From Verrucomicrobium sp. (GTDB lineage: Bacteria; Verrucomicrobiota; Verrucomicrobiia; Methylacidiphilales; UBA1321): a stretch of DNA of 64,000 bases. A program made the position numbers and the translations under genes. Below, one piece after another: positions 37,418-62,479 of the stretch (its first letter is position 1; the number at the start of each line of letters is the position of its first letter). The stretch spans positions 62,001-126,000 of the forward strand of contig JAFIGT010000023.1 in the NCBI GenBank assembly GCA_017849585.1, written 5' to 3'. The notes beneath the pieces were generated by a model that made no database searches, was not told the origin of the DNA, and saw only the letters and a list, made by a program, of their open reading frames with translations.

Positions 37418-37466
37418 GCATGGCGGATCGGTCTTGCCGACGACCGCCATGCGTTTTCCTATTTTT
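37418..37466. terminator. Hairpin terminator between convergent genes
   Basis: A perfect 9-base stem GCATGGCGG (37418-37426) / CCGCCATGC (37444-37452) encloses a second small stem (CGG-TCTTG-CCG). The T-rich stretch GTTTTCCTATTTTT follows in the rightward direction, so it ends the PEP-CTERM transcript. It overlaps the last codons of the convergent methyltransferase gene. Confidence 0.8.
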
Positions 37467-38343
37467 CACGTAGCAGTTCGATGATTTGGGGTCTTTTATT
37501 CGAGACCGCCACGTAATTGGGACCAAAGTACATGTCGAACAGGGCCGCATCGGCGGTATCGTAAGGAGCAAATTCGACCCCCTTGGGGTAGAGCTTTCCC
37601 AGGCTGAAATTTTTCGCACCGAGAAGATCGTAAAAATCTTTCAGGAAGAATTGCGTTCGGGAATTCATCGTCCCGTATTCGAACTGGATGATGTCGATGA
37701 ATTCGTCATTGAGGTATTGCTCGAAGCCCTTAAGCACGAGCGGTTCTGCTCCCTCGGTATCGATCTTCAGGAAGTCAACGTGAGCGATACTCTTTTCGGC
37801 GATGTACGAACTGGCCTTTCTCACCGGGCAGGAAATCTTCCTTCCTTCGCCATGTTGCGGGTATTCGAAGATCGACGAAAATCCGGTGGACGCTTCGTAC
37901 ACATTGACGTCCACTGTTGTCTCTTCATCTGATAACCCGAAATTATTTCCCATAATACGCTCCCGCCCACCCGTAAGCGCGGAAAATCTCTCGTAAGTGC
38001 TGGGGACGATTTCAAACGAATGAATCGTCGCGGTATGAATGTACTTCGAGGCAATGAAAGCCCACTCGCCTTCGTTGGCACCCACGTCGAAAATGATCTT
38101 GGGATCGAGCGATGCCAGTTGCTGCATCAGCCAATATTCTCCGTTGGTCCTCGGATCGTAATTGATGTTGTTGTACCGCTTGGTGTAGGTATCGCAAAAG
38201 ATCATCAACGCCTTGGCTCCCCAATCGCCGCGCTCACAGGGAAGCGTTTCGGCCGCCTTCAAAATCTCGGCTTTGCCGACCGGCTGCACCTGGCCCACCG
38301 TCCCGTGCAAAATATGGTAAAAAACCTCTTTGGGCGTAAGCAT
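37459..38343 (-). CDS. FkbM-family methyltransferase
   Basis: A 294-aa SAM-dependent methyltransferase. The SAM-binding motif FDVGANEGEWAF is near residue 85, with the acidic IHSFEIVPSTYERF after it. HVDFLKIDTEGAEPLVLKGF near residue 190 is the FkbM family signature. The family O-methylates sugars and small molecules, often in surface polysaccharides. As cargo beside a PEP-CTERM gene it may modify the cell surface (inference). It has its own upstream gap of 157 bases. Confidence 0.88.
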   Translation of the reverse strand: MLTPKEVFYHILHGTVGQVQPVGKAEILKAAETLPCERGDWGAKALMIFCDTYTKRYNNINYDPRTNGEYWLMQQLASLDPKIIFDVGANEGEWAFIASKYIHTATIHSFEIVPSTYERFSALTGGRERIMGNNFGLSDEETTVDVNVYEASTGFSSIFEYPQHGEGRKISCPVRKASSYIAEKSIAHVDFLKIDTEGAEPLVLKGFEQYLNDEFIDIIQFEYGTMNSRTQFFLKDFYDLLGAKNFSLGKLYPKGVEFAPYDTADAALFDMYFGPNYVAVSNKRPQIIELLREK

Positions 38344-38500: not shown

Positions 38501-39166
38501 CTACGCTTTTTTCCAAATGACCTCTAGGCATGTGTCACGTTTGCGATGTTCTGCTGAAATAGCAACTTCACACATATCTGAAACAGAATAATCGACGACA
38601 AGCTCGGCTACAGCACCCTGCTTTCCTCGTGTTTTCTTCCTTTCCGAAAATGGATAATCTGCCACCTTATAAAAGGTACTTTCATCACGAACTGGCGGAT
38701 TGTAGAGAGTACTTCCAGAGTTGATTGGACAAAGCGTTATTCTATCTTCGTGACGTTCGATAAGAGCACGAGTATCAACGGTTATTACGCAATGATCTTT
38801 ATTTCGATACGCCCTAGCGTTAAGTAGGGTCGAAAGTCTCTCGGGCGTGAGCCAAAAAAAAGTTTTCCGGTTGAGAATCTCGTACCATTGAGACGGTTTC
38901 AAATTGTTTAGACACTTTCGAAGTGCTGATTCTCTTAATGGCTTTTGATCGCGTATCACCGCGGACCCGTACTTCGGGTGTTCTATGGTAACAGATTCAG
39001 GGCGACGCATGGATTCGATTTTTCTCCGTTGTGGAGGGTCCACTTGGAATAAATCAAGCAGAGCCGTTGTGCTTAGCAATCCATGTTTGGAAATCGAAGG
39101 CCATGTCCCGGCTTCGGCCATGTGGTATAATCTCGGATAATTCTGAATTAATTCTTCGATGGTCAT
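38501..39166 (-). CDS. DUF7002-like protein, possible ADP-ribosyltransferase-fold enzyme
   Basis: A 221-aa protein opening with PRLYHMAEAGTWPSISKHGLLST, similar in pattern to the start of DarT and other ART-fold enzymes (YH...I...GLlst). Further conserved-looking blocks are AVIRDQKPL, ILNRKTFFWLTPERL and CPINSGSTLYNPPVRDESTFY. I associate these blocks with the family of unknown function DUF7002. The link to ADP-ribosylation is inference, supported by the macrodomain two genes upstream. The ATG at 39166 lies 5 bases after the PurZ-like stop; a TTG 12 bases earlier overlaps that stop. Last gene of a three-gene operon. GC content is lower than the T4SS backbone. Confidence 0.6.
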   Translation of the reverse strand: MTIEELIQNYPRLYHMAEAGTWPSISKHGLLSTTALLDLFQVDPPQRRKIESMRRPESVTIEHPKYGSAVIRDQKPLRESALRKCLNNLKPSQWYEILNRKTFFWLTPERLSTLLNARAYRNKDHCVITVDTRALIERHEDRITLCPINSGSTLYNPPVRDESTFYKVADYPFSERKKTRGKQGAVAELVVDYSVSDMCEVAISAEHRKRDTCLEVIWKKA

Positions 39167-39171
39167 GCAGA

Positions 39172-40800
39172 TTACCAAGCTCTTCGATCAATGATGCTGC
39201 GTTCATGAAATCGGGTGGAAATTAATGTCACTGGTGCAGCAGAAACACGCTCCACTTCTTCTATAAATCGAATCGTTGGATCAGTAAGTTGCTCAAAACG
39301 TCGCGCATTTACATTCTGTCGATCAATATAATCGGCAAAAGTCAGCGCAATGTCTGTAGGCGCGTTTAACGAAGCTGCTTTTCGAAGCAAAACCCAATCA
39401 AACTCTGCAACCCGGCGAGGATTGCCACTTACAGAGCCAACCTCATGCGAGGCAATCTTTCCGCGTTTAAAGTGAGCCCGCCGCTCCACTTCTGCCCAAG
39501 TGATTTCTTTCGACATGAATCCAGAGGTATATTCTTTGCTTGGTGAACCCACCCGAATCGGATAGCTGCGACAAACCATAACTACTTTACGCACCCGACT
39601 TGGTGAAATTCCTGCTTCAGCCAAGCAGCCTGCCACTGTTGTATCTCGTGACGTAGTATGGGGATAATGTCCATGATAGAGGCTTAATCCTGTGCCTTGA
39701 GTGCCTTCTAATAGAGCCCTCCTTCCCGCCCGAAAAATACGTTGAAGTACATCGCAAGAATCATGTAGATAAGGTCTCAAGGCGGGGATATCCTGCGCAA
39801 GTTTTACACCGGATTTACCGCGGCCCGTAATACGTCGCGCTGTCGCTAATCCAACACCTTGACCAGTCGAACCAATCAAACCTTTTACTCCCCCTTTTCC
39901 AGATTCTCGATTTCGATCGATCTCACTAATTGTCATGACTTGCGGATCGATCATTAACCTATTAACGTCAATCTTTGCGTTTGCAATTTCCTCAAGAAGG
40001 GTTGGTACATGTACGACAGCACCAGCTCCGATAAGCAATTTAGCTTCGCTGGAAAGCGATCCGGAGGGAAGATGCCGGAACGTAAAGTTTTTGTCTGTTC
40101 CGGGAATTTTGACCTTATGACCTGCATTTGGGCCGCCAACCCGAATGAGAAGCTCGTATTCGGGGCTCAAATACGACGCTACTTGGCCCTTACCTTCACT
40201 CCCATACTGGCCACCCACCATCACGTCTACGAGACGAACGTATTCGCGTCCATACCAGCCAAGATGACTCGCAACGCGGACGACGATATCCTCTTCATTG
40301 CAGAGATTGCTATCGATGACGACGTCGGCTATGCGACGAAGATCCTCGACCTTGGATTCAGTGCGATTGGAAAGGACATCGGCGTATTTTCCCAACTCAG
40401 CAATATCGGTTTTGCGCTTTTTTCGCTGTTCGTACCGTCGCTTTAACTCCTTTAATGGCGCGGTAAGGTGGACGTGAACAATGCGCCTTCCATACGCTTT
40501 ACGAAGAAAGTCGATTTGGCCGGGATGCCTAACAGAATCGACAACGATGCCACCTTTTACAGATTCCTGTCGTTCGATTTTCTGTAAATCGTCACGCACC
40601 CATGCTCCACGCGTCTGGCGATCTAACCGCTCACCAAGTTGCTGTAGTGCAGTGCGCTCTAGCTTTAAGTTCTCACCACGCGCCTTAATGAAGCTCCACG
40701 TCTTTACATGTCGAAAATTGAAATGCTCTGCGAGATTTTCCGCAAGTCTGCTCTTTCCCGCACAAACGTGCCCGGAAAGGATCACAATTTGTTCAGCCAT
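39172..40800 (-). CDS. P-loop nucleotide kinase fused to a PurZ-like adenylosuccinate synthetase
   Basis: A 542-aa fusion. Residues 1-180 are a P-loop kinase (VILSGHVCAGKSRLAENLAE; IVVDSVRHPGQIDFLRKAYG; lid region LKRRYEQRKKRKT) like dNMP or dephospho-CoA kinases. Residues 190-540 are an adenylosuccinate synthetase: GGQYGSEGKGQ, VGGPNAGHKV, GSTGQGVGLATARR, EGTQGTGLSLYHGHYPHTTS, EVGSVSGNPRRVAEFDWV. In ordinary PurA the first motif is WGDEGKGK; here the catalytic Asp is Ser, as I recall for phage PurZ enzymes, which act on dGMP. The C-terminal part is shorter than E. coli PurA (about 350 vs 432 residues). So it is unlikely to be housekeeping purine synthesis. It lies 17 bases after the IrrE-macro gene. 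Confidence 0.85.
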   Translation of the reverse strand: MAEQIVILSGHVCAGKSRLAENLAEHFNFRHVKTWSFIKARGENLKLERTALQQLGERLDRQTRGAWVRDDLQKIERQESVKGGIVVDSVRHPGQIDFLRKAYGRRIVHVHLTAPLKELKRRYEQRKKRKTDIAELGKYADVLSNRTESKVEDLRRIADVVIDSNLCNEEDIVVRVASHLGWYGREYVRLVDVMVGGQYGSEGKGQVASYLSPEYELLIRVGGPNAGHKVKIPGTDKNFTFRHLPSGSLSSEAKLLIGAGAVVHVPTLLEEIANAKIDVNRLMIDPQVMTISEIDRNRESGKGGVKGLIGSTGQGVGLATARRITGRGKSGVKLAQDIPALRPYLHDSCDVLQRIFRAGRRALLEGTQGTGLSLYHGHYPHTTSRDTTVAGCLAEAGISPSRVRKVVMVCRSYPIRVGSPSKEYTSGFMSKEITWAEVERRAHFKRGKIASHEVGSVSGNPRRVAEFDWVLLRKAASLNAPTDIALTFADYIDRQNVNARRFEQLTDPTIRFIEEVERVSAAPVTLISTRFHERSIIDRRAW

Positions 40801-40817
40801 GTATTGCCTTTTAAATT

Positions 40818-42173
40818 CTATTGAAAAAGACTCTCCTGAGAGAGTTGCCTCCTTCTACTATTTGGCAAGTCGTAAACTGTAACCGAAATTCCCGCACTAC
40901 ACAATATTTCGTCAATTAAGGCTGCAACCAATGGCCATGCACCTCCAGCCTCACCAGTACCAATGCGAGGCATATGAATGGTAGCTTTTAAATCCAACGC
41001 ATAGTCTCGTATTTCTAAGAGGCAGTCGCGAAGAGCGGCATACCGTAATCTCGGACGGTCGGATGGGCCATAACCGTGCTGACAAATCATCTGACATACG
41101 ATCAAGTCACTATCTGCATTACTGAAAAATACCTTTCCTAAACGCTTATGTGATAAACCCGACCATGAATTCTTAAAAAGATTCTGAACCTGTGGCCATT
41201 TCTGTTGAACAACTTTGCCAAATCCAGCCCCCCAGTTTGGAGTCGAATCATTCACCACATGAGCCAGAATTCTTATTCCACCGCCATGTGGCATCGTCGC
41301 ATCACCCGTTACAAATTGGATATCCGCTACTGATTCGGTCCGGCTCCTAGCCGGTTGCAATAGTCCTACTACTCGCGGATAGACGTGACCTGGATAAGGA
41401 GAAATTCCAGCGCATTCAACGTGAACGCTCCCAACGCCAGACCATTCCTCGTTGCCAGTCGAAGTATATCCTATCGCCGTGCAATCGTTTAAAACCGATT
41501 GTTTAGGTGGAACTAAAGCCTGCGATTGCTTTCTACGAATCGCCCGTGAAGGTACCCAGTAATTTATGTCATAATGCCTCTGCTTGGACGGCATCTGTGA
41601 AGCCACAAACATGATGTACGGTTGATGCGTAACTCGAATTAGCCGAAGAAGCACGCTCTCAGTTGAAACTTCAAAACTTTCTCGTAACTCTAAAATATTC
41701 TGAATCGAAAGAATCTTGTCTTTGAACTCACTAAGACAGCCCGTTGGCATCAACAATTCAGCGGCGCCCAAGTTGCAGAGCATTTCGAGCTCCCATTCGT
41801 TGGGCTGGTAGCTGGCACGCGACGCTCTATTGCGTATTTGCTCTGAGCAATCGGGGAAAAACGTGTGCGCAATTTCGTGTGCGACAGAGTATCGCACCCG
41901 CGCGCGCGGACGATTAGGATTGTACTCGATTTGTACGCGATCTTTGCCCAACGGAACAGTTCTAGCATCAAGAATCGCGTTATTGGGAACTACGGTAATG
42001 CGTCTTAGTTCAGCAAGTATAAACGGATCAAAGGGAGGCCCTTGCCATCCCGATTGCATCGCATTAAGGGCGGCCTCTGCCGCCGTACGCAACATCAAAT
42101 CCACAGGATCGTCATCAGCGGCAAACATCCTTACCGAGGGATGTTTCCATTGATGGGAGAGAGGAACGCTCAT
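40818..42173 (-). CDS. ImmA/IrrE-type metalloprotease fused to a macrodomain
   Basis: A 451-aa fusion. The N-terminal half has the zinc motif VAHEIAHTFFPD (HExxH) near residue 100 and ELEMLCNLGAAELLMP, the ImmA/IrrE signature. ImmA-type proteases cut repressors or antitoxins. The C-terminal half (about 285-440) is a macrodomain: FVTGDATMP, GIRILAHVVNDSTPNWGAGF, HMPRIGTGEAGGAWPLV. Such domains bind or hydrolyse ADP-ribose. I chose ATG 42173 over the preceding TTG. First gene of the operon with the PurZ-like fusion and the DUF7002-like gene. Confidence 0.85.
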   Translation of the reverse strand: MSVPLSHQWKHPSVRMFAADDDPVDLMLRTAAEAALNAMQSGWQGPPFDPFILAELRRITVVPNNAILDARTVPLGKDRVQIEYNPNRPRARVRYSVAHEIAHTFFPDCSEQIRNRASRASYQPNEWELEMLCNLGAAELLMPTGCLSEFKDKILSIQNILELRESFEVSTESVLLRLIRVTHQPYIMFVASQMPSKQRHYDINYWVPSRAIRRKQSQALVPPKQSVLNDCTAIGYTSTGNEEWSGVGSVHVECAGISPYPGHVYPRVVGLLQPARSRTESVADIQFVTGDATMPHGGGIRILAHVVNDSTPNWGAGFGKVVQQKWPQVQNLFKNSWSGLSHKRLGKVFFSNADSDLIVCQMICQHGYGPSDRPRLRYAALRDCLLEIRDYALDLKATIHMPRIGTGEAGGAWPLVAALIDEILCSAGISVTVYDLPNSRRRQLSQESLFQ

Positions 42174-48331: not shown

Positions 48332-49486
48332 ATGGCGAAAGAGATTACTCGATATATTCGGCGGGAAACCGAGCGTGAATTATGGGCTAGATCAGCTGGT
48401 CGTTGCCAATTTGATGGATGCAATAAGCCCCTATATAAATCCCCCTTAACCCAGGAACAGGTTAACATCTCCGAAAAAGCTCACATCTATTCTTTTTCGG
48501 AACTGGGTCCACGAGGTTGGGGGCCTTTCATTACAAACACGAAGCAGCTCAATGACGTGAGCAATCTCATGCTCATTTGCCATGACTGCCACAAAACCAT
48601 CGACGCCGATAAAGCCGGTGAGCGCTATCCGGGAGATCTCTTGCTCAAGTGGAAGGAGGAGCACGAAAAGCGTATTTATGTGGTCACAGGCGTGGATCCT
48701 ACAAAAATATCATGCGTTATTCTCTACGGAGCTAACATCGGGAACGAAAGTTCTATGCTGCAGCCCGCCGCAACAAAACAGGCACTTTTTCCCGATTGGT
48801 ACCCCTCTGAGGAACGTCCGGTTTGCCTTTCCATGAGTTGGGAGGGGAAAGACAGCGATCCGCACTATTGGGAGACAGAGGCGAGAAATCTTGAAAGTGC
48901 CTTCGACCGTCGAGTTCGTCCGCTTCTGAATGGTACTGAGCATGCCCATTTTTCACTGTTCGCGCTTGCACCGATGCCGCTCCTGATTTTGTTTGGCTCG
49001 CTCCTCACCGATAAAATTCCAGCACAGACCTATCAGTTACATCGTGAGCCTTTCCAAACATGGAGATGGCTGGAAGACGCAAGTGGGATCGAGTTTGAGA
49101 TGAAACGGCCGCCCTCCTTCGATCACGCCCCAGTGCTAATCATTTCGTTGAGTGACCATATAGCGCGATCGCGCGTTACGGGCGTCGTGGGAGAAAACAT
49201 TTCTGTCTGGGAACTAACGATTCACTCGCCCCATAATGATTTCCTTAAATCCAAGGACCAGTTATCCCTATTCAGACAGGCAACTCGGCGCTTGTTTGTG
49301 GAGATTGGTCAGATGCACGGAAAAGATATCCCAATCCTGATTTTCCCCGCCATGCCTGTCGCTTGTGCGGTCGAGTTGGGCAGAGTGCGTATGCCCAAAG
49401 CGGATAATCCCTGGATCGTATACGATCAGAATAACAAACATGGGAAGTTTATACGCACTTTAGAAATTGGAGTTCATAATGAATGA
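48332..49486 (+). CDS. cap5: CBASS effector: HNH nuclease fused to SAVED sensor (Cap5)
   Basis: A 384-aa protein. Residues 1-110 are an HNH nuclease: zinc-type Cys pair CQFDGC, AHIYSFSELGPRG, and NLMLICHDCHKTIDAD. Residues 125-384 fit the SAVED domain that binds cyclic oligonucleotides (VCLSMSWEGK, FSLFALAPMPLLILFGSLLT, PVLIISLSDHI, GKDIPILIFPAMPVACAVEL). Cap5 proteins degrade double-stranded DNA when the phage-triggered signal binds. First gene of the operon; its last 8 bases overlap the CD-NTase. Confidence 0.92.
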   Translation: MAKEITRYIRRETERELWARSAGRCQFDGCNKPLYKSPLTQEQVNISEKAHIYSFSELGPRGWGPFITNTKQLNDVSNLMLICHDCHKTIDADKAGERYPGDLLLKWKEEHEKRIYVVTGVDPTKISCVILYGANIGNESSMLQPAATKQALFPDWYPSEERPVCLSMSWEGKDSDPHYWETEARNLESAFDRRVRPLLNGTEHAHFSLFALAPMPLLILFGSLLTDKIPAQTYQLHREPFQTWRWLEDASGIEFEMKRPPSFDHAPVLIISLSDHIARSRVTGVVGENISVWELTIHSPHNDFLKSKDQLSLFRQATRRLFVEIGQMHGKDIPILIFPAMPVACAVELGRVRMPKADNPWIVYDQNNKHGKFIRTLEIGVHNE

Positions 49487-50693
49487 CGTTTTCGCATCAA
49501 AGTTGATCCAGGAAATTGCTGAAACCATCGACATACCGCAATCCGCTTACGACAAGGCGGAGTCCCGATATGAGGATCTGGGAAAATGGTTCGGTAGTGC
49601 TGAAGCTTACTGCAGCCGCTTTAAACCCCACGTTTACACACAAGGATCGTTCCGACTGGGAACAGTCATTCGTCCAATCGATCCCACAAGTGAATATGAT
49701 TTGGACATGGGATGCCGTCTTGAGTCGGGAATAACAAAAGCCAGTCACTCTCAGAAGCAATTGAAGGAGTTGGTCGGGCGTGACATTGAGCAATACCGGA
49801 TCGCTCGCGGAATCAAAGAAGCTAAAGAGGAGAAGCATAGATGTTGGAGGCTAAAATATGCTGATACCCTGAGATTTCATCTAGATACTGTACCGTCCAT
49901 TCCTGAAAGTGCTGAGCGCCGACGACAAATCTCCGAATCTGTCATGCGGGAAGGAGCGTCGCTCGATCTAGCAAAGTTAGTCGCGGATTTAACAGGAGCC
50001 ATTACCGATAATCGCATGGCGAACTATTCGATTCTGGATTCCAACTGGCGTCTAAGTAACTCAGAGGGGTTTGCTCGTTGGTTTGAGTCACGAATGAAAT
50101 TGGCAAAGACCTTGATGGTGGAGCGCGCATCAATTGAACGAAAGGCGACCATCGACGACCTCCCCGCCTATCGGTGGAAATCCCCCCTTCAAAGATCGGT
50201 ACAGCTTCTGAAGCGTCATAGAGATGCGATGTTCGTAAACAATCCTGACAGTAAACCAGCCTCTATTATAATCACGACTCTAGCGGCTCGGGCCTATCAA
50301 GGCGAAGTCGATATAGCGGTGGCTTTACAGGGAATACTAACAAAGATGGGGACCCTCGTGCGTCCGAATGCGCCCCGCGTGCCAAACCCAGTAAATCCGG
50401 CAGAAGATTTCGCAGATAGATGGGTGGATCCCTCGTTAAACTTGGAAGCCAATTTCTGGCGATGGCTGCGGCAAGCACAAAATGACTTCGCTGCGATTGG
50501 AAAGGAAAAGAAAGTAGAGTTGATCGTTGAAAACTCGAAGAAAAATTTCGCTGTCAATCTTAGCTCGGCTGAATTAGTCAAAAAATTTGGGACTCCGTCT
50601 GGAGAAGGACTTTTGAAAACTGCAGCCATACCTGCCGGATTAAGCTTTCCCTCAAAACCTTTGATTCCTTCGAAGCCAGCTGGGTTTGCGTAA
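49479..50693 (+). CDS. CD-NTase, cyclic oligonucleotide synthase of CBASS
   Basis: A 404-aa nucleotidyltransferase that makes the CBASS second messenger. The active site is visible: YTQGSFRLGTVIRP (GS motif) followed by EYDLDMGCRL (metal Asp pair) at residues 50-80 and a third acidic residue in RFHLDTVPSIPE near 135. The C-terminal helical part ends in a Pro/Lys/Ala-rich tail (KPLIPSKPAGFA), the kind of C-terminus that the Cap2 ligase conjugates in type II systems (family knowledge). Clade not assignable by eye. ATG 49479 overlaps the effector stop. Confidence 0.9.
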   Translation: MNDVFASKLIQEIAETIDIPQSAYDKAESRYEDLGKWFGSAEAYCSRFKPHVYTQGSFRLGTVIRPIDPTSEYDLDMGCRLESGITKASHSQKQLKELVGRDIEQYRIARGIKEAKEEKHRCWRLKYADTLRFHLDTVPSIPESAERRRQISESVMREGASLDLAKLVADLTGAITDNRMANYSILDSNWRLSNSEGFARWFESRMKLAKTLMVERASIERKATIDDLPAYRWKSPLQRSVQLLKRHRDAMFVNNPDSKPASIIITTLAARAYQGEVDIAVALQGILTKMGTLVRPNAPRVPNPVNPAEDFADRWVDPSLNLEANFWRWLRQAQNDFAAIGKEKKVELIVENSKKNFAVNLSSAELVKKFGTPSGEGLLKTAAIPAGLSFPSKPLIPSKPAGFA

Positions 50694-50700
50694 TTGTGAT

Positions 50701-52500
50701 ATGACACCTTGGTTTTTGAGAGATCCGAAACGCCTTACAGCAGAACGGTCCGGCATAGATGAGTTGCTCGCTAGACCTGAAAGCTGGCTCATAGGAGCTC
50801 AATGGACTCTGGTCGACGGCGGTCTTTGTATCGATGCAATAATTCGTTCGCACGGCTACGATTATGAAATTAGGTTGACGTTTCCAACCTTATTTCCAGA
50901 TGTTCCAATATACATTTGCCCTCAGAACGAGAACCTCCGGATTTCAACACATCAGTACGGTGGGGTAGATGGCCCTCTTTGCCTCGAATGGGGACCGGAT
51001 AACTGGCACTCGGGAATTACTGCGGTACAAATGCTTGAAAGTACCTATCGACTTTTAGAAATCGAGAATCCTCGAGGCAAGGCTGCGACCGGTTCCTCGA
51101 TCATCGCACCATCCCGGCATCACCTAAGTGTAGGACAAGAACTTCGCACTGAGCGCTCCCGGTGGTACTATAGCAAGGAGTTTGAAAATTTTCTCCGTGG
51201 GCAGGCGGCTTTTGCGGTGGGAGGCTTTAAATTTTCATGGCGAATTTTGGAGAATAGTCAAATTGTTCTCATACACGAAGCAAAGCTCATTGGACAAGAA
51301 CCGGCGTGGTGCGATAAGAGCGTGCCGACTGTTATTCCCGATGCTACAGATACGACACAATTTAGCGGAATTTGGATTAAAACAGATCTCCCCGCTGATG
51401 TCATAAGCGGAATTCAAAAGCTGAATGAATTGCGAGTTCTCCTCGCTAATCAGAATGGTCATGCATTGTTTGCCACAGATGGCAGCGCTCCGGTTGAAGG
51501 GTTCAACAGAACCATAGCAGGAGTATTGATCGTCGACTCTGCTGGACTACCGCATTTCTCGCTGGTGCTGCATGGCGAGGACGTGATTTCTCGCTCAATG
51601 GTACAGTCAAACGGTGCCCCAGATCCAGCTCGGGCGCCTGACGAAGCCGGTCTTCGTGGCAAGAGCGTGGGAATCGTCGGACTGGGTTCTGCAGGGAGCA
51701 AAATTGCGTTATCATTGGCACGCATGGGAATCAAAACATTCTATCTTTCCGATTATGATGTGCTGTTACCTGAAAATCTGAGAAGAAACGCTCTTAATTG
51801 GCAAAATGTCACCGAACACAAGGTCGATGCGGTATCCCATGCTATCCGATTGATTGCTCCCGATGCTAAAGTCGAGGTAAGTCGATTGCATTTGACAGGG
51901 CAGGAATCAAGCGCGTCGGTCAGCGGCGTCCTGGCAAGACTAGGCGGTTGCGATCTTATCATTGATGCTACAGCGAACCCTCGAGTCTTTAATCTTTTGG
52001 CGTCAGTAGCACGGATGGCGAACCGGCCAATGGTATGGCTGGAAATATTTGCAGGCGGAATCGGTGGCCTGATTGCCCGCAGTCGACCTGGACTCGACTC
52101 CTCACCCCAGGAGATTCGCAGTTCCTATCTCCAGTTTTGTTCCAACAACCCATTCCCGCTCCTGGCCAAAATACCAAGGAATTACTCGCTAGAGACCGAG
52201 GACGGAGAGGTTCTCTCCGCTTCTGACGCAGATGTGGGCGTTATTGCAGATCACAGTGCCCGGCTTGCCTGTGATTGTCTTGCTTCAAAAGAAGCATCGA
52301 TTTTCCCTCACTCATTCTATCTAATTGGATTAAAGAAAGGATGGATTTTCGAGGCTCCGTTTGCAACGGTTCCCTTGGCCTTAGACAACCTTAATACCGC
52401 ACCAAATGCTCCGGTGAATGATCCTCAGCTCGATCCTGAAAATGTTGCGTTTCTAATAAATCTTTTGGGAGAGAAAGATGCGCCTCCTTCTTCCTCCTGA
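50701..52500 (+). CDS. cap2: CBASS E2-E1 ubiquitin-like ligase (Cap2)
   Basis: A 599-aa fusion. The N-terminal E2-like domain carries GGVDGPLCLEWGPDNW with the predicted catalytic Cys near residue 95. The C-terminal ThiF/E1 adenylation domain begins with VGIVGLGSAGSKIALSLAR near residue 325, followed by FYLSDYDVLLPENLRRN and DLIIDATANPRV. In type II CBASS Cap2 links the CD-NTase C-terminus to targets and primes it. ATG 50701 is preferred; GTG- or TTG-type extensions of 5 residues are possible. Overlaps the JAB gene by 23 bases. Confidence 0.9.
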   Translation: MTPWFLRDPKRLTAERSGIDELLARPESWLIGAQWTLVDGGLCIDAIIRSHGYDYEIRLTFPTLFPDVPIYICPQNENLRISTHQYGGVDGPLCLEWGPDNWHSGITAVQMLESTYRLLEIENPRGKAATGSSIIAPSRHHLSVGQELRTERSRWYYSKEFENFLRGQAAFAVGGFKFSWRILENSQIVLIHEAKLIGQEPAWCDKSVPTVIPDATDTTQFSGIWIKTDLPADVISGIQKLNELRVLLANQNGHALFATDGSAPVEGFNRTIAGVLIVDSAGLPHFSLVLHGEDVISRSMVQSNGAPDPARAPDEAGLRGKSVGIVGLGSAGSKIALSLARMGIKTFYLSDYDVLLPENLRRNALNWQNVTEHKVDAVSHAIRLIAPDAKVEVSRLHLTGQESSASVSGVLARLGGCDLIIDATANPRVFNLLASVARMANRPMVWLEIFAGGIGGLIARSRPGLDSSPQEIRSSYLQFCSNNPFPLLAKIPRNYSLETEDGEVLSASDADVGVIADHSARLACDCLASKEASIFPHSFYLIGLKKGWIFEAPFATVPLALDNLNTAPNAPVNDPQLDPENVAFLINLLGEKDAPPSSS

Positions 52501-56447: not shown

Positions 56448-56584
56448 CTTTTGGGCCTAAACCTCCTTGAGAAGACAACAGGTGCCGAGTGCTCGCCACA
56501 AGGCGGCTCACAGGCTCCCGCTATCTTCTGAGGGGTTGGGCGCAAAGGCTGATATTCTTGTTGAGGCTACTGGAGGGATTGGCC

Positions 56585-57673
56585 TTGAAAGACCGTTATC
56601 GACTCTTCCGCCGCTCGGGAGGCATCTACTACGTTCGGGACACCGTCACGCTGCGCAAGCAAAGTCTGGAAACCGACGACGTGGTGAAAGCGCGCCGTTT
56701 GCTCGCCGCCAAAAACCAAGCCGTCGAACAACCGGCGCTCAACCGGAGCATGGCCAAGGCGTACTTGTCCGGCATCTCGCCGGAATTCACCACCCGCACC
56801 TGGACCGATGTGATGGATATGTATGTGCGTACCGGAGTCGAATCGACCCGCGACCGCAAGGAACGGGCGTTCAAGAGCCGTCCGTTTGCGCTCCTGCGGA
56901 AGGTGAAAATTATCGACACCGAAGCGATTCATTTGTTTGCCGTGCTGGAGCACAAGCAGTCCGGCAATTCCACGCATCATTACCTGAAGCGGATTCATAA
57001 TTTCGCCCTGCACTTGGGCTGGCTCTTGTCGCCGGTCATGGCCGAGGCCGCGTGGCCGTCCATGCGCAAACAACACTACTCCGCGCTCACCACCGACGAA
57101 CACAACCGGATCATCGAGAAAGAAGGCAATCTGGAGCGGAAGCTGTTTTACCAGTTGCTCTGGGAAACAGGCGGTTCGCAGTCCGACATTGCGAATTTGA
57201 GTTGGGAGAATGTGGACGGGGAAAACAGCGTGCTCTCGTTTCAACGCCAGAAATTGCTGAACCGTGGCGAGGGATCGAGCTGTCTCCATATCGGTCCCCG
57301 CATTCGCGCTCTTCTCGACCAGTTACCGCAGGAGGGCTTTTTCTTTCCGAAGATTCGACTGGAAGAACCCAAACACCGCGCTGCTGAATTCAAGCGCCGC
57401 TGCCGCACCCTGAAGATCGAAGGCCGTGTCCTGCACTCGTATCGCTACGCATGGGCGCAGCGCGCCCGCAACGCTGGAATGCCCGAGCGCGAGGCGATGA
57501 TTCATCTCGGGCACAAGTCTCGTGCGATACATGCGGCCTACGCGGGCGGGGCGCAAGTTGCGGTGCTGCCGTTGGAATTCTACGAAGCTCAAAAAGAGAA
57601 GAAGGTGATTCAGTTCAATAGTTCCCCTGACCAAAATAGCAGAGATCAAGAACGACAGAGCGCTGCCCTGTAA
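56585..57673 (+). CDS. int: Tyrosine recombinase/integrase with altered catalytic site
   Basis: A 362-aa site-specific recombinase. C-terminal catalytic motifs are LHSYRYAWAQRARNAG (H-x-x-R) near residue 285, IHLGHKSRAIHAAYA with the second His and the nucleophilic Tyr near 320. The first Arg, normally in a TGLRxxEL motif, is replaced: the block reads ETGGSQSDIANLSW. This variant is one I associate with Verrucomicrobiota integrases. A TTG start at 56585 is supported by GGAGGG at 56572-56577, 7 bases upstream; the open frame extends upstream to GTG 56489 but overlaps regulatory sequence. Confidence 0.8.
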   Translation: MKDRYRLFRRSGGIYYVRDTVTLRKQSLETDDVVKARRLLAAKNQAVEQPALNRSMAKAYLSGISPEFTTRTWTDVMDMYVRTGVESTRDRKERAFKSRPFALLRKVKIIDTEAIHLFAVLEHKQSGNSTHHYLKRIHNFALHLGWLLSPVMAEAAWPSMRKQHYSALTTDEHNRIIEKEGNLERKLFYQLLWETGGSQSDIANLSWENVDGENSVLSFQRQKLLNRGEGSSCLHIGPRIRALLDQLPQEGFFFPKIRLEEPKHRAAEFKRRCRTLKIEGRVLHSYRYAWAQRARNAGMPEREAMIHLGHKSRAIHAAYAGGAQVAVLPLEFYEAQKEKKVIQFNSSPDQNSRDQERQSAAL

Positions 57674-58914: not shown

Positions 58915-59015
58915 ATTTCAATCCGCGCCCGGAAACTGTTCTCCGAGCGATTTATCTTTTACTGCCTTACGAACAGGTTCGACAATTTCAATCCGCGGCA
59001 TGTTCTCTGCCGATC
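58915..59015 (-). CRISPR. Minimal CRISPR array: two degenerate type I-C repeats and one spacer
   Basis: The core ATTTCAATCCGCG occurs at 58915-58927 and 58985-58997, exactly 70 bases apart. On the reverse strand both read ...CGCGGATTGAAAT, the hallmark 3' end of type I-C repeats. Each is followed (plus-strand order) by a hairpin whose loop holds TGTTCT: CGGCA-TGTTCTC-TGCCG for the second, CGCCCGG/CCGAGCG with one mismatch for the first. The repeats differ by 6 bases in length, so they are degenerate. The intervening 34-38 bases have the size of a spacer. The right-hand repeat begins within the cas7 stop codon region. Confidence 0.65.
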
Positions 59016-59925
59016 AAAGAAGCTCCAGAATCTCCACCTCCTGCGATAGATTTTCCCTATCAATTTCAACTGAATAGTCCGAAAAAGAACGAGCCGTAAC
59101 CACATCGGGTTTGCGTCGGACCGAGATGCGCTCGAAAAGCTTGTGGGCGGGAGCATTTCCCAGCATTGAAGAATGCTTGAAGACGATAAGCTTCTGAGGT
59201 GCCATGATGCCGCGAGTAGCGGAACGGTCATGCTCAAATAAACCTAGGAAGGATTCCCACAAAAGAGCCAGATCATCCCCATTAAACCCCGTTTGATTGG
59301 CCAAATGTGCACTGATAAAGCCATGTGTCCGGTAGAGCCCATAAGGAATGATATTTTTGCGGCCCATCGTAGTATCCTTGGTCTCCTTCTCCTTTTCATT
59401 GGCGACGGCAATTCGCGTGACGCAAAGATCCAGAGGGAGAATCGGATCGACAGAACGGGAAAAAGAGATTTGCACCGGCCCTCGCACTTGCCCCGCATTG
59501 AAAATTTTGAGCGACATCACCGCTCCAAAGGTGCGCACATCGAAATAATGCTCGCATATCCATCGCTTAATTTTCTCCAAATCATGCGGAGATTGACGAC
59601 CTCTTTTTTTCCTATATGGAGCTCTTCGTTCTTCGCCCTCCGGTGATTCTACCGGACTCACTACAGCCTCAAGCCCCAAAGTCTCGTAGGCAGCCCTGTG
59701 AACCAACTCCAGAACCCCGTGATGGGAGACATATATGCGGTAACGTTCTTGTGGGGAGCGAGTCAAAGAAACGTAGTCTCTAATTTTTCGCTTCAGGCAA
59801 ACATCGGAAACCAAGCCATGCATGTTTTGAGGATCGATCCTAGGGGCATTTCCAGCGTCGGGATCGCCGTTTGGGTTGCCATCCTTACAATCGAAAAGAT
59901 AAACAAAGTCATAACGGTTGTTCAT
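59014..59925 (-). CDS. cas7c: Type I-C Cas7 (Csd2) backbone protein
   Basis: A 303-aa RAMP protein that coats the crRNA. The start YDFVYLFDCKDGNPNGDPDA is the Csd2 signature, followed by MHGLVSDVCLKRKIRDYV and FGAVMSLKIFNAGQVRGPVQ. Normal length. ATGA-type overlap with cas8c. Its stop codon abuts the CRISPR repeat; in ordinary I-C loci cas4-cas1-cas2 would come next. Confidence 0.93.
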   Translation of the reverse strand: MNNRYDFVYLFDCKDGNPNGDPDAGNAPRIDPQNMHGLVSDVCLKRKIRDYVSLTRSPQERYRIYVSHHGVLELVHRAAYETLGLEAVVSPVESPEGEERRAPYRKKRGRQSPHDLEKIKRWICEHYFDVRTFGAVMSLKIFNAGQVRGPVQISFSRSVDPILPLDLCVTRIAVANEKEKETKDTTMGRKNIIPYGLYRTHGFISAHLANQTGFNGDDLALLWESFLGLFEHDRSATRGIMAPQKLIVFKHSSMLGNAPAHKLFERISVRRKPDVVTARSFSDYSVEIDRENLSQEVEILELL

Positions 59926-61703
59926 AAATTCTTTGGTGTAGTGTGAAATAAGGTTGGAATATAAGACTTTTTCTCTTCGTACTTCTTCTTACGTTCCGTG
60001 CTGCGACGGCGATAGAACGCCTTTTGGTGATAATAGCCGAGCGCGAATCGCCCTTGGCCTTCGAGATCGAGTAATTGAGGAAATTTGCCTTCAAGAGTTT
60101 CACTAAGTTCATTCAGATCCTGGCAAACATTTGCTTCAATGCCCCACTCGACCCGTGCCAGATGAAACTGGGCATTGCGAAACAAGCGTCCCATCACCAA
60201 AGCCGGAGTAGTGCTGGCACTCGTATAAAATCGTTCAATAATGCCGGAGTTAAGCTCGCCTTGGGCAAGACATTGCAAGCGATCAAATACAGCGAAAAGC
60301 CTGCCGCAAAGATAGGCAGGATCTTTGTTCTCAGGGGTCAATTGTTCGGTCACGGCATCACCTCTATTTCGATTAGGAGAGCGGATGAGACAGAGCTTAA
60401 TAAGGGCCGTTCGTGCCACATTTAACTTCGTCTGCTGGTCAAGCAATTGACGGCGGACAGCACTCGCCAGTATTGCACGGGATAAATAAACGGATCGTCC
60501 TGTAAATGCGCCACGAAACAGCGTCGAGGATGCTGATGCAGACAGTTCGCGTAGGTCAGAACGAACAAGGCTGTAAAGAATCTCCCTAAATTTAAAATTC
60601 CTTTTTATATGTTCACCGTCAAGCCGCACCAGACTCAAATCTTCAAACCATTCAGAAATATTTTGGGCCATCTGCGGAATGGTAGACTCCAGCCAATCCC
60701 GAACGATGATTCGGGTGCCATTTCCAGAAAGACCCAATGCATAGTAAGCGTTCGGATCTATGGATAGATCAGCGTGCCCCTGTTGAATGGAGTGCAACAG
60801 ATGTTCGGCGGCGCAACTCTCGCCCGAGAGAAGGATTTCAGATGGACTCCAATCCAATGACTGTTTAGTCCAATGGATGTAAATGGTGTTATTGAAGATC
60901 AATTTCTGTTGGCGACTCTTCTTGATGAGGTGAGTTAAGGCAGAGCGGATTTTTAATTCTGCGTATGGAGATAGTGGCGCGTTTTGGGCCTGTTCGAATC
61001 CATAAGAGCAGAAAGCTTCTTTATCGAAACTGACAAGGTTGGCACCGACAGCCATTGTTCCCGGAATTCCCTTAATTTTGTCCGTAGTATTTAAGGCCAC
61101 GGTCAATTTTCCCGAGACAAGACAAATGCGTTTTGGCTTTCCTTTCTCTTTTTCTTCCATTTCACGCTTGCTTCGCCGAAGCCAGTAATTTCTAAGCTTT
61201 TTTAATTCTAAAAGATTGGTGCCTGCGACAAAGAATGTTGCATTATGAATGGCCTTGGCTTTTTGCCCTCGAAGGTCGGCGTGACACAACCCGATTCCAG
61301 TTTCATCCTCTAGAAAGTTTAGCACAGGATAGAGATAGTCTGATTCCGTAGGGCATTCGCCAATAGCTTCCCTTAGAAGACCCTTGAAATAGGAATGTTG
61401 TTTTCGTCGTGTGCCTTCCTTTTTTGAAGAAGAATCATCAAGATAAAGCACTACGCGCTCCAACGTATCGCAGAGAAAATGAGACTTCTTTCCGCTTGTT
61501 AGGTGATTGGGAGAAACGTAAGGACGAGAAAATATCGCCGGACGAACGTGATTGGGTTTGATTTCCTGAAACAAACGTAGCGTTCCGTTAAATTGCCCGG
61601 AACGGTCTAGGAAAATTCCCCAACGAACGGAAACGGATTCCACGCCATCGGTCCGCCCGAGCCCTTCGTATTCTGCGTATGATACCAGTGCCGGAAGGAT
61701 CAT
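59922..61703 (-). CDS. cas8c: Type I-C Cas8c (Csd1) large subunit
   Basis: A 593-aa protein: MILPALVSYAEYEGLG at the start is typical of Csd1, with blocks KPKRICLVSGKLTVALNTT, GANLVSFDKEAFCSYGFEQA and a C-terminal FALGYYHQKAFYRRRS, the usual C-terminus of Csd1 proteins. It recognises the PAM and, in I-C, also encodes the small subunit by internal start. Overlaps cas5 and cas7 by 4 bases each. Confidence 0.9.
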   Translation of the reverse strand: MILPALVSYAEYEGLGRTDGVESVSVRWGIFLDRSGQFNGTLRLFQEIKPNHVRPAIFSRPYVSPNHLTSGKKSHFLCDTLERVVLYLDDSSSKKEGTRRKQHSYFKGLLREAIGECPTESDYLYPVLNFLEDETGIGLCHADLRGQKAKAIHNATFFVAGTNLLELKKLRNYWLRRSKREMEEKEKGKPKRICLVSGKLTVALNTTDKIKGIPGTMAVGANLVSFDKEAFCSYGFEQAQNAPLSPYAELKIRSALTHLIKKSRQQKLIFNNTIYIHWTKQSLDWSPSEILLSGESCAAEHLLHSIQQGHADLSIDPNAYYALGLSGNGTRIIVRDWLESTIPQMAQNISEWFEDLSLVRLDGEHIKRNFKFREILYSLVRSDLRELSASASSTLFRGAFTGRSVYLSRAILASAVRRQLLDQQTKLNVARTALIKLCLIRSPNRNRGDAVTEQLTPENKDPAYLCGRLFAVFDRLQCLAQGELNSGIIERFYTSASTTPALVMGRLFRNAQFHLARVEWGIEANVCQDLNELSETLEGKFPQLLDLEGQGRFALGYYHQKAFYRRRSTERKKKYEEKKSYIPTLFHTTPKNL

Positions 61704-62479
61704 AGGAAGCCGACCCCCAAACTTTTTTTAAGTTGCCGCCACTCTGGAACAACAACAATTCCGTCTTTTAATCTGGATGGGAAGAAGCTGACTCTCGGAC
61801 GCGGAACTTGATGTTTCGCATTTTTCCCTGGCAAAACATCCAGATCAAAAACATCGTAAAGCATCAAACCAAAATCTGAATCCACATTCAGATTGGGAAT
61901 GATTTGCATCTCTTGAGGGGTTGCCAACTCGAAGTTAGCCGGAAATTCACGGCAACCCAAGCTAGGCTGGGTAAAACACTGCCCTTTCTCAGCCCGCCGT
62001 CGAAACATCGCCATGTATTTACCTATTGAGTCGCCGTCACCATTTATCTTTGTTCGTGAACGTTGCGAAAGACATCCCGCCAACTGTGTTAGCTCCATGC
62101 TCGCTTCGATCACATATTCCACGTCTCGCAATGCTAACGTATTGCGCTGGGTATGGTCTTCATCCGTCAGAAGGCATTCAGCAAGGGCCGCTTGTTCTGG
62201 AGAAACAGGGAATTCTCCCGCTCCACGTCCTGCATTCAGAGAAAAGAGACGCAGAGACAACCTAGATTTCACTTCGTTTCGTCGGAACGAAAGGAATTGA
62301 ATTGGCTTTCTCACCGCAATCCGATGAATGCGCCATCGGAATTGCGGTTTGTAAAGAATTGCCTCCAACACACCACGCGCCGCGCTGGGCGTTATAACGG
62401 GATAGCTTACCCGTTCCACTTTCATTTCAGGACGGGTAAAGCAGGCCCAATCACCCCAAATGCGCAAGTAAATGTTCAT
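61700..62479 (-). CDS. cas5c: Type I-C Cas5 (Cas5c/d) pre-crRNA nuclease
   Basis: A 259-aa protein, IYLRIWGDWACFTRPEMKVE at the start as in Cas5d, then SYPVITPSAARGVLEAILYK. In type I-C Cas5 replaces Cas6 and cuts the repeat hairpin. The start ATG is clear. No cas3 lies upstream; the gene begins 22 bases after the PII-like stop, leaving little room for a separate promoter. Confidence 0.9.
   Translation of the reverse strand: MNIYLRIWGDWACFTRPEMKVERVSYPVITPSAARGVLEAILYKPQFRWRIHRIAVRKPIQFLSFRRNEVKSRLSLRLFSLNAGRGAGEFPVSPEQAALAECLLTDEDHTQRNTLALRDVEYVIEASMELTQLAGCLSQRSRTKINGDGDSIGKYMAMFRRRAEKGQCFTQPSLGCREFPANFELATPQEMQIIPNLNVDSDFGLMLYDVFDLDVLPGKNAKHQVPRPRVSFFPSRLKDGIVVVPEWRQLKKSLGVGFL

What the first reader, a model, noticed from the sequence alone, without database searches (positions are those of the whole stretch)
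38501..42173. Candidate undescribed system: IrrE-macrodomain / kinase-PurZ fusion / DUF7002-like operon
Three genes on one strand with 17- and 5-base gaps and lower GC than the surrounding T4SS backbone. Seen: HExxH plus macrodomain in the first; P-loop kinase plus adenylosuccinate synthetase in the second; a DarT-like YH...GLLST start in the third. Known: macrodomains reverse ADP-ribosylation, ImmA/IrrE proteases cut repressors, ART-fold proteins modify DNA or protein, PurZ makes 2-aminoadenine precursors from dGMP. Inference: the fusion makes a modified (deoxy)nucleotide, used either as a signal or to alter DNA, while the ART-like and macro parts form a toxin/reversal pair, with IrrE releasing the response. 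No defence system I know has this combination.
Basis: partly seen in the sequence, partly recalled or inferred. Interest (0 to 1): 0.88.

Follow-up and report, generated by a model that had tools for sequence, protein, structure and literature searches.

The report
PurZ-kinase and DarT-like enzyme operon
A rare, widely shared set of bacterial genes pairs an enzyme related to the one that phages use to make the alternative DNA letter 2-aminoadenine with an enzyme shaped like the DNA-tagging toxin DarT, probably as an undescribed anti-virus system.

Summary
Of 90 loci encoding DUF7002, 64 have an adenylosuccinate-synthetase (AdSS) gene beside it, nearly always kinase-fused. IrrE-macrodomain lies upstream in 22 of these, across six phyla. 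In 37, all alphaproteobacterial, a YfbR-like HD hydrolase and an ATP-grasp protein take its place; the two sets never mix. From the other direction, every kinase-AdSS fusion found by its own sequence also has DUF7002 (8/8 plasmids, 5/5 genomes).

The AdSS half carries Ser instead of catalytic Asp13 in 64/64 sequences, the hallmark of phage 2-aminoadenine synthetase PurZ, and forms a third clade beside phage PurZ and PurZ0, apart from PurA. DUF7002 folds confidently (pLDDT 97) as an ADP-ribosyltransferase nearest DarT1, with invariant His15 and Glu188. The macrodomain resembles SCO6735, which removes DarT-type thymidine ADP-ribose (PMC11833690).

The window's copy sits between a conjugation region and CBASS and CRISPR I-C. 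I infer an inducible defence module coupling 2-amino-(deoxy)adenylate synthesis to ADP-ribosylation. Chemistry and phage protection are untested. No matching description was found in the libraries searched.

The parts
40818..42173 (-). Gene 1: IrrE/ImmA-type metallopeptidase fused to an ALC1/TARG1-like (SCO6735-like) macrodomain
   Evidence: homologues in the same place in 22 loci
41640..41936 (-). Peptidase_M78 (IrrE) match
   Evidence: Pfam PF06114 E 9e-11, residues 75-173 of P0001; the CapP profile covers 27-231
41865..41879 (-). HEIAH zinc-peptidase motif
   Evidence: Read from the sequence; HExxH in 20 of 21 fused homologues, HDLAH in L040
40866..41327 (-). Macrodomain
   Evidence: 2afc, 2fg1 and 5e3b matches, E 1e-27 to 4e-32
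39172..40800 (-). Gene 2: nucleotide kinase fused to a PurZ-like adenylosuccinate synthetase
40267..40800 (-). P-loop (d)NMP-kinase-like domain
   Evidence: AAA_18; UPF0200/AdkA-like and adenylate kinases by profile; phage (deoxy)nucleotide kinases
39181..40230 (-). Adenylosuccinate synthetase domain, PurZ side of the tree
   Evidence: PF00709 7e-54; phrog_1211 9e-67; tree
40198..40200 (-). Ser201 in QYGSEGKG, at the place of PurA's catalytic Asp13
   Evidence: Ser in 64/64 sequences
38501..39166 (-). Gene 3: DUF7002, ADP-ribosyltransferase fold
   Evidence: PF22531 1.9e-70; AF2 model pLDDT 97; DarT1 nearest
39122..39124 (-). His15, predicted NAD-binding His in beta-1
   Evidence: Invariant 57/57; aligns with DarT1 LFHFT
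38603..38605 (-). Glu188, predicted catalytic Glu (VAELVV, compare DarT QAEFLV)
   Evidence: Invariant 57/57; compared with 13 DarT sequences

Best explanation
This is a horizontally spread, defence-island-type module whose core is two genes: a bifunctional (deoxy)nucleotide kinase / PurZ-like synthetase and a DarT-fold ADP-ribosyltransferase (DUF7002). Inferred working: the synthetase joins aspartate to (d)GMP, host PurB removes fumarate to give a 2-aminoadenine nucleotide, and the fused kinase phosphorylates it. Phage infection, which frees dNMPs by breaking down host DNA, would feed this reaction. The unusual nucleotide then acts as the signal or the substrate that lets the transferase put ADP-ribose on nucleic acid or nucleotides and stop phage replication, probably by growth arrest. 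In the window's form, the macrodomain removes ADP-ribose in healthy cells and the IrrE peptidase is the switch or regulator. In the alphaproteobacterial form, a YfbR-like dNMP phosphatase and an ATP-grasp enzyme take over the control. Shown by computation: gene order, co-conservation, domain identity, intact active-site residues, PurZ-type Ser, ART fold. Inferred: substrate, product, order of steps, trigger and phage protection.
For: Core pair conserved: 64 of 90 DUF7002 loci have AdSS beside it, and 8/8 plasmid and 5/5 genome kinase-AdSS fusions found by their own sequence have DUF7002 beside them. The stop of AdSS overlaps or lies within 9 bases of the DUF7002 start in nearly all. D13 to S 64/64 with K16 and H41 kept 64/64; a clade beside phage PurZ and PurZ0, split from PurA at 100/99. 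The published rule is Asp in 99% of PurA and Ser in 100% of 147 phage PurZ (PMC12884076). Kinase profile hits include phage deoxynucleoside monophosphate kinases (20 of 37 members), phage guanylate kinase (31 of 37) and the kinase part of anti-phage dCTP deaminase. PurB is encoded in the same genome. DUF7002 model and fold matches. The macrodomain is near SCO6735, which removes thymidine-linked ADP-ribose (PMC11833690). Defence surroundings: CBASS and CRISPR I-C in the window; KwaB-like, SIR2 + DUF87, AbiEi/AbiEii, AbiJ-NTD4, VapBC and adenosine-deaminase neighbours on plasmids. Rare and patchy: 1/388 in its own phylum, 6 AdSS hits (5 kinase-fused) in 298 of a rhizobial family.
Against: No experiment. 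The NCBIfam PurZ cut-off is not reached (176 of 300 bits). The ribo/deoxy choice is unresolved: Arg303 is kept in 18/64. No Z-specific polymerase or MazG-like gene was recognised as a conserved partner. The macrodomain is missing from 37 loci, so reversal is not general. DUF7002 also occurs alone (26 loci, a few cut short by contig ends). The defence-neighbour count (151 PADLOC families against 60 in a control) is only suggestive.
Confidence: 0.42

Rival explanations
1. A toxin-antitoxin (addiction) module of a mobile element: DUF7002 is the toxin, the macrodomain undoes its mark, IrrE controls expression, and the kinase-AdSS makes the substrate or a neutralising nucleotide. Phage protection is secondary.
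For: DarT-like fold plus SCO6735-like macrodomain; carried on plasmids, five of them typed conjugative, and beside a conjugation region in the window.
Against: A simple TA pair would not need a 540-aa two-domain synthetase; the antitoxin candidate is missing in 37 of 64 loci; DUF7002 also occurs alone.
Confidence: 0.22
2. Nucleotide-pool poisoning: PurZ-kinase drains dGMP and makes 2-amino-dATP, which is itself the effector, stalling or mutating phage replication; the ART tunes or reinforces this.
For: PurZ-type Ser 64/64; the S-2L Z cluster was toxic to E. coli (PMC8342488); dNTP-depleting defences exist; the alphaproteobacterial form has a YfbR-like hydrolase, the fold class of phage DatZ (own knowledge).
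Against: Does not explain the nearly obligatory DUF7002 gene.
Confidence: 0.17
3. Self-marking or anti-restriction: the modified nucleotide enters the element's DNA, or is conjugated to it, and protects it from host nucleases or from the ART.
For: Z-DNA resists restriction enzymes (own knowledge); conjugative and plasmid setting.
Against: No Z-specific polymerase among conserved partners; many copies are chromosomal.
Confidence: 0.07
4. Ordinary accessory nucleotide metabolism or biosynthesis of a secreted nucleoside, not a defence.
For: All core enzymes are nucleotide- or NAD-using; a deazaguanine-type AdSS cluster exists in Rhizobium.
Against: No transporter or other biosynthetic genes conserved; rare, patchy, defence-rich context; ART nearest to a toxin.
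Confidence: 0.12

Closest known systems
Phage PurZ / PurZ0 2-aminoadenine pathway (S-2L, phiVC8, Arthrobacter phages)
   Same: Asp13 to Ser, His41 and Lys16 kept, sister clades in the tree; the alphaproteobacterial form also has a YfbR-like HD hydrolase
   Different: Bacterial rather than phage (3 DUF7002 relatives found in 2.9 million viral contigs), fused to a kinase, coupled to an ART, no Z polymerase or MazZ; guanine-binding Asp333 kept as in PurA and PurZ0
DarTG (DarT ART + DarG macrodomain or NADAR)
   Same: ART fold nearest DarT1, His in beta-1, AExLV Glu strand; a macrodomain in the operon in the window's form
   Different: DUF7002 does not match the DarT family profile; the macrodomain is ALC1/SCO6735-type and fused to a peptidase, not DarG; two extra enzymatic activities
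SCO6735 macrodomain of Streptomyces coelicolor
   Same: Closest characterised solved relative of the macrodomain (5e3b, E 1.5e-27); removes thymidine-linked ADP-ribose (PMC11833690)
   Different: SCO6735 is a stand-alone macrodomain
CapP of CapH-CapP (CBASS control)
   Same: IrrE half is a CapP-like HExxH peptidase (E 4.5e-21)
   Different: Fused to a macrodomain; no CapH-like repressor gene recognised in the window operon
dNTP-targeting anti-phage enzymes (dCTP deaminase with kinase domain, dGTPase, Clover)
   Same: Related P-loop kinase domain (1.5e-11); theme of altering deoxynucleotide pools
   Different: Adds an amino group to a purine via aspartate rather than deaminating or dephosphorylating; coupled to an ART

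Membership tests
PurZ (succino-2-amino-deoxyadenylate synthase) | Ser at the place of PurA Asp13 | tested here: met
   64/64 fused homologues and the window
PurZ (succino-2-amino-deoxyadenylate synthase) | Catalytic Lys16 and His41 kept | tested here: met
   64/64
PurZ (succino-2-amino-deoxyadenylate synthase) | Groups with phage PurZ/PurZ0, away from PurA | tested here: met
   Split 100/99; own clade 100/98 beside them; sparse references, some long branches
PurZ (succino-2-amino-deoxyadenylate synthase) | Reaches NCBIfam NF038379 cut-off | tested here: not met
   176.3 of 300 bits
PurZ (succino-2-amino-deoxyadenylate synthase) | Uses dGMP + aspartate | not testable with these tools
   Needs enzyme assay
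PurA (adenylosuccinate synthase) | Catalytic Asp13 | tested here: not met
   Ser in all; the genome has a separate normal PurA with Asp
DarT (PF14487) | Matches the DarT family profile | tested here: not met
   Only PF22531 reported at E up to 1; DarT profile comparison weak, probability 7% over 30 columns
DarT (PF14487) | ART fold with His in beta-1 and catalytic Glu | tested here: met
   Foldseek 1.2e-5, Z 10.9 to DarT1; H15 and E188 57/57, Glu strand motif as in DarT. Residue roles inferred from alignment
DarT (PF14487) | ADP-ribosylates DNA bases | not testable with these tools
   Needs assay
DarTG toxin-antitoxin system | DarG antitoxin (macrodomain plus DarT-binding domain, or NADAR) | tested here: not met
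   Best DarG score 11 bits, E 0.045; macrodomain is SCO6735-like
CapH-CapP | CapP-like HExxH peptidase | tested here: met
   E 4.5e-21 over residues 27-231
CapH-CapP | Adjacent CapH-type HTH repressor | tested here: inconclusive
   No obvious gene in the window operon; not searched for across all loci
Any described anti-phage system in PADLOC-DB 2.0.0 | Whole system modelled | tested here: not met
   DUF7002 has no match; others match only as domains

The most novel reading that the evidence does not exclude
Bacteria carry their own PurZ-type synthetase and make 2-aminoadenine (deoxy)nucleotides as an immune signal or as the substrate of an ADP-ribosyltransferase: a nucleotide chemistry known until now only from phages that rewrite their genomes, used on the host side in two alternative operon designs.
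Probability: 0.35. Interest if true: 0.92.

Novelty: categorically new. Interest (0 to 1): 0.8.

Why it matters
If the synthetase makes 2-aminoadenine nucleotides, the third purine route known from Z-genome phages also exists in bacteria, where it may be the older form or a capture from phages, and it is coupled to ADP-ribosylation. It would give DUF7002, a family with no assigned function, a fold and a likely activity. It would also offer a two-gene core, with two interchangeable control modules, that can be tested in E. coli within weeks.

Tried and rejected
FkbM methyltransferase (37459-38343) as a fourth member: rejected, no methyltransferase family recurs beside the core among the neighbour clusters. 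Ordinary PurA: rejected by Asp13 to Ser and by a separate PurA in the genome. DUF7002 as a plain DarT: sequence link is only the N-terminal motif, so the fold carries the claim. Phage origin of the operon: 3 DUF7002 hits in viral contigs and none in phage records. Guanine-N2 ADP-ribosylation, suggested by DarT1 being the nearest fold: kept open, but guanine marks are reversed by NADAR, not by DarG's macrodomain (PMC11543638). The PADLOC neighbour count with a control: suggestive only, as the tool does not give the number of distinct proteins and the control held one Septu locus. The 2012 NAD-pathway survey of de Souza and Aravind is not held. Literature searches for DUF7002, PurZ in bacteria, and AdSS with ART/IrrE found no description.
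Full report
1. Observation. Gene 1 (42173-40818) is an IrrE-type metallopeptidase with HEIAH plus a macrodomain; gene 2 (40800-39172) is a P-loop kinase plus adenylosuccinate synthetase (AdSS); gene 3 (39166-38501) is DUF7002, a Pfam family without known function.

2. Surroundings. Low-GC DNA separates the operon from a conjugation region on one side and DUF932/ParB genes on the other. From 48 to 62.5 kb lie a CBASS operon (SAVED-HNH, DncV-like cyclase, E1-E2), an integrase and type I-C cas genes. The element is accessory: 1 of 388 genomes sampled in its phylum has it. The closest relative is a Limisphaerales (Verrucomicrobiota) genome, 66% identical in DUF7002 and 84% in AdSS.

3. Conservation. 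I searched with DUF7002, not with the fusion, and fetched 80 loci, plus 10 plasmid loci. Profiles built from the window and a rhizobial plasmid were run over all ORFs and counted. Of 90 loci, 64 have AdSS directly upstream. 22 have IrrE-macro upstream of that: Verrucomicrobiota, Acidobacteriota, Planctomycetota, Actinomycetota, Myxococcota and Pseudomonadota. 37 have a YfbR-like HD hydrolase (Pfam 6e-6) and a 455-aa protein instead; one has that protein only; four have neither. No locus has both sets. The 90 include one duplicate (L004 and L032 are the same plasmid) and some truncated contigs. The reverse search, with kinase-AdSS as the query, found 8 full-length plasmid fusions and 5 genome fusions (one of them the genome of L023), all with DUF7002 next door. 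AdSS and DUF7002 overlap or nearly touch. In the tree the two operon designs are two sister groups, 92/93 and 100/96, so the partner set was exchanged once or very few times.

4. The synthetase. PurA needs Asp13; it is kept in 99% of PurA, while 100% of 147 phage PurZ have Ser (PMC12884076). In the kinase-fused family it is Ser in 64 of 64, with Lys16 and His41 kept in all. The genome has its own normal PurA with Asp and a PurB. In the tree, the fused family, phage PurZ and phage PurZ0 lie together on one side of a 100/99 branch, PurA on the other. Caution: few references, long branches for the genome's PurA, the Ochrobactrum phage and the Sinorhizobium medicae row, and the NCBIfam PurZ cut-off is not reached. 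PurA's Arg303, said to meet the 2'-OH of IMP (PMC8342488), is Lys in 32, Arg in 18 and Asn in 8, so ribo versus deoxy cannot be read off. Asp333 is kept in all, as in PurA and PurZ0.

5. The kinase. P-loop, Asp88 and Arg122 are invariant and Arg91 nearly so. The profile is nearest to UPF0200/AdkA-like and adenylate kinases among solved structures, and members match phage guanylate, thymidylate and deoxynucleoside monophosphate kinases and the kinase part of an anti-phage dCTP deaminase. A (d)NMP kinase acting on the synthetase's product, after PurB, is the natural reading; it is inference.

6. DUF7002. A 57-sequence alignment gave a model with pLDDT 97 and pTM 0.92. The best solved match is DarT1 (Foldseek 1.2e-5, probability 1.00), then other DarT proteins and more distant ARTs, including Tpt1/KptA. 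VIA-align gives Z 10.9, rmsd 3.4 over 163 residues for DarT1. His15 lies in the first strand and Glu188 starts a later one, as in ARTs; both are invariant in 57 of 57, including 19 loci without AdSS. VAELVV resembles DarT's QAEFLV. The DarT Pfam profile itself does not match, so this is a DarT-like ART, not a DarT.

7. The first gene. The macrodomain's closest solved relatives are BT1257 (2fg1/2afc) and 5e3b, which I take from own knowledge to be SCO6735. SCO6735 is a TARG1/ALC1-type macrodomain that removes thymidine-linked ADP-ribose and was proposed to guard against DarT-like toxins (PMC11833690). The IrrE half is closest to CapP, which by own knowledge cleaves the CapH repressor to switch on CBASS. 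So gene 1 plausibly both reverses the ART and controls the operon; neither is shown. HExxH is kept in 20 of 21 homologues; L040 has HDLAH.

8. The alternative partners. The 455-aa protein (A6) has no sequence relative in the PDB but models well (pLDDT 89.5) and matches ATP-grasp enzymes such as D-Ala ligases and pyruvate phosphate dikinase, 47 hits at E up to 0.001. With the YfbR-like hydrolase this makes a purely nucleotide-centred set.

9. Mechanism. I commit to an inducible defence in which a PurZ-type reaction on (d)GMP makes an unusual purine nucleotide that licenses, or is used by, a DarT-like ART. Shown: anatomy, conservation, intact residues, fold. Inferred: chemistry, order, trigger, outcome. 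Rivals are a toxin-antitoxin module, pool poisoning, self-marking, and ordinary metabolism.

10. Known or new. PADLOC, PHROGs, Pfam and NCBIfam hold the domains but no such system, and literature searches found none. Absence from these libraries is not proof of novelty. I rate the combination categorically new because it fits neither DarTG (no DarT family match, no DarG) nor the Z-genome pathway (bacterial, kinase-fused, ART-coupled); the parts taken singly are variants of known kinds.

Noticed in passing
window 48332-52500 (+): CBASS operon: SAVED-HNH effector, DncV-like cyclase, E1-E2 fusion.
   Followed up: partly
window 59014-62479 (-): Type I-C cas genes (cas7c, cas8c, cas5c), with an integrase at 56489-57673.
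   Followed up: partly
L110:6057-10611 and L012:5296-9937: A second bacterial PurZ-like form without a fused kinase (GSEGKG kept): in L110 beside a protein that ends in a P-loop kinase domain and a dCTP-deaminase-like membrane protein; in L012 (Sinorhizobium medicae plasmid) beside a YfbR-like HD hydrolase, a dCTP-deaminase-like protein and a ThiF-like protein.
   Followed up: partly
L102:5378-11632 (Rhizobium leguminosarum plasmid): AdSS (Asp kept) with FolE, PurB, QueE, QueC and IMP dehydrogenase: looks like a deazapurine pathway that adds an amino group, perhaps a modified base or antibiotic.
   Followed up: no
L052, L058, L060, L061, L063, L072, L079 and others: DUF7002 without AdSS in 26 loci, with His15 and Glu188 kept in all 19 aligned; partner genes not worked out.
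   Followed up: no
L004:1-5089: A 844-aa adenosine-deaminase-like protein after a large upstream gene beside the alphaproteobacterial form: resembles RADAR (RdrA/RdrB).
   Followed up: no
window 37459-38343 (-): FkbM methyltransferase just downstream on the same strand, not conserved with the operon.
   Followed up: partly
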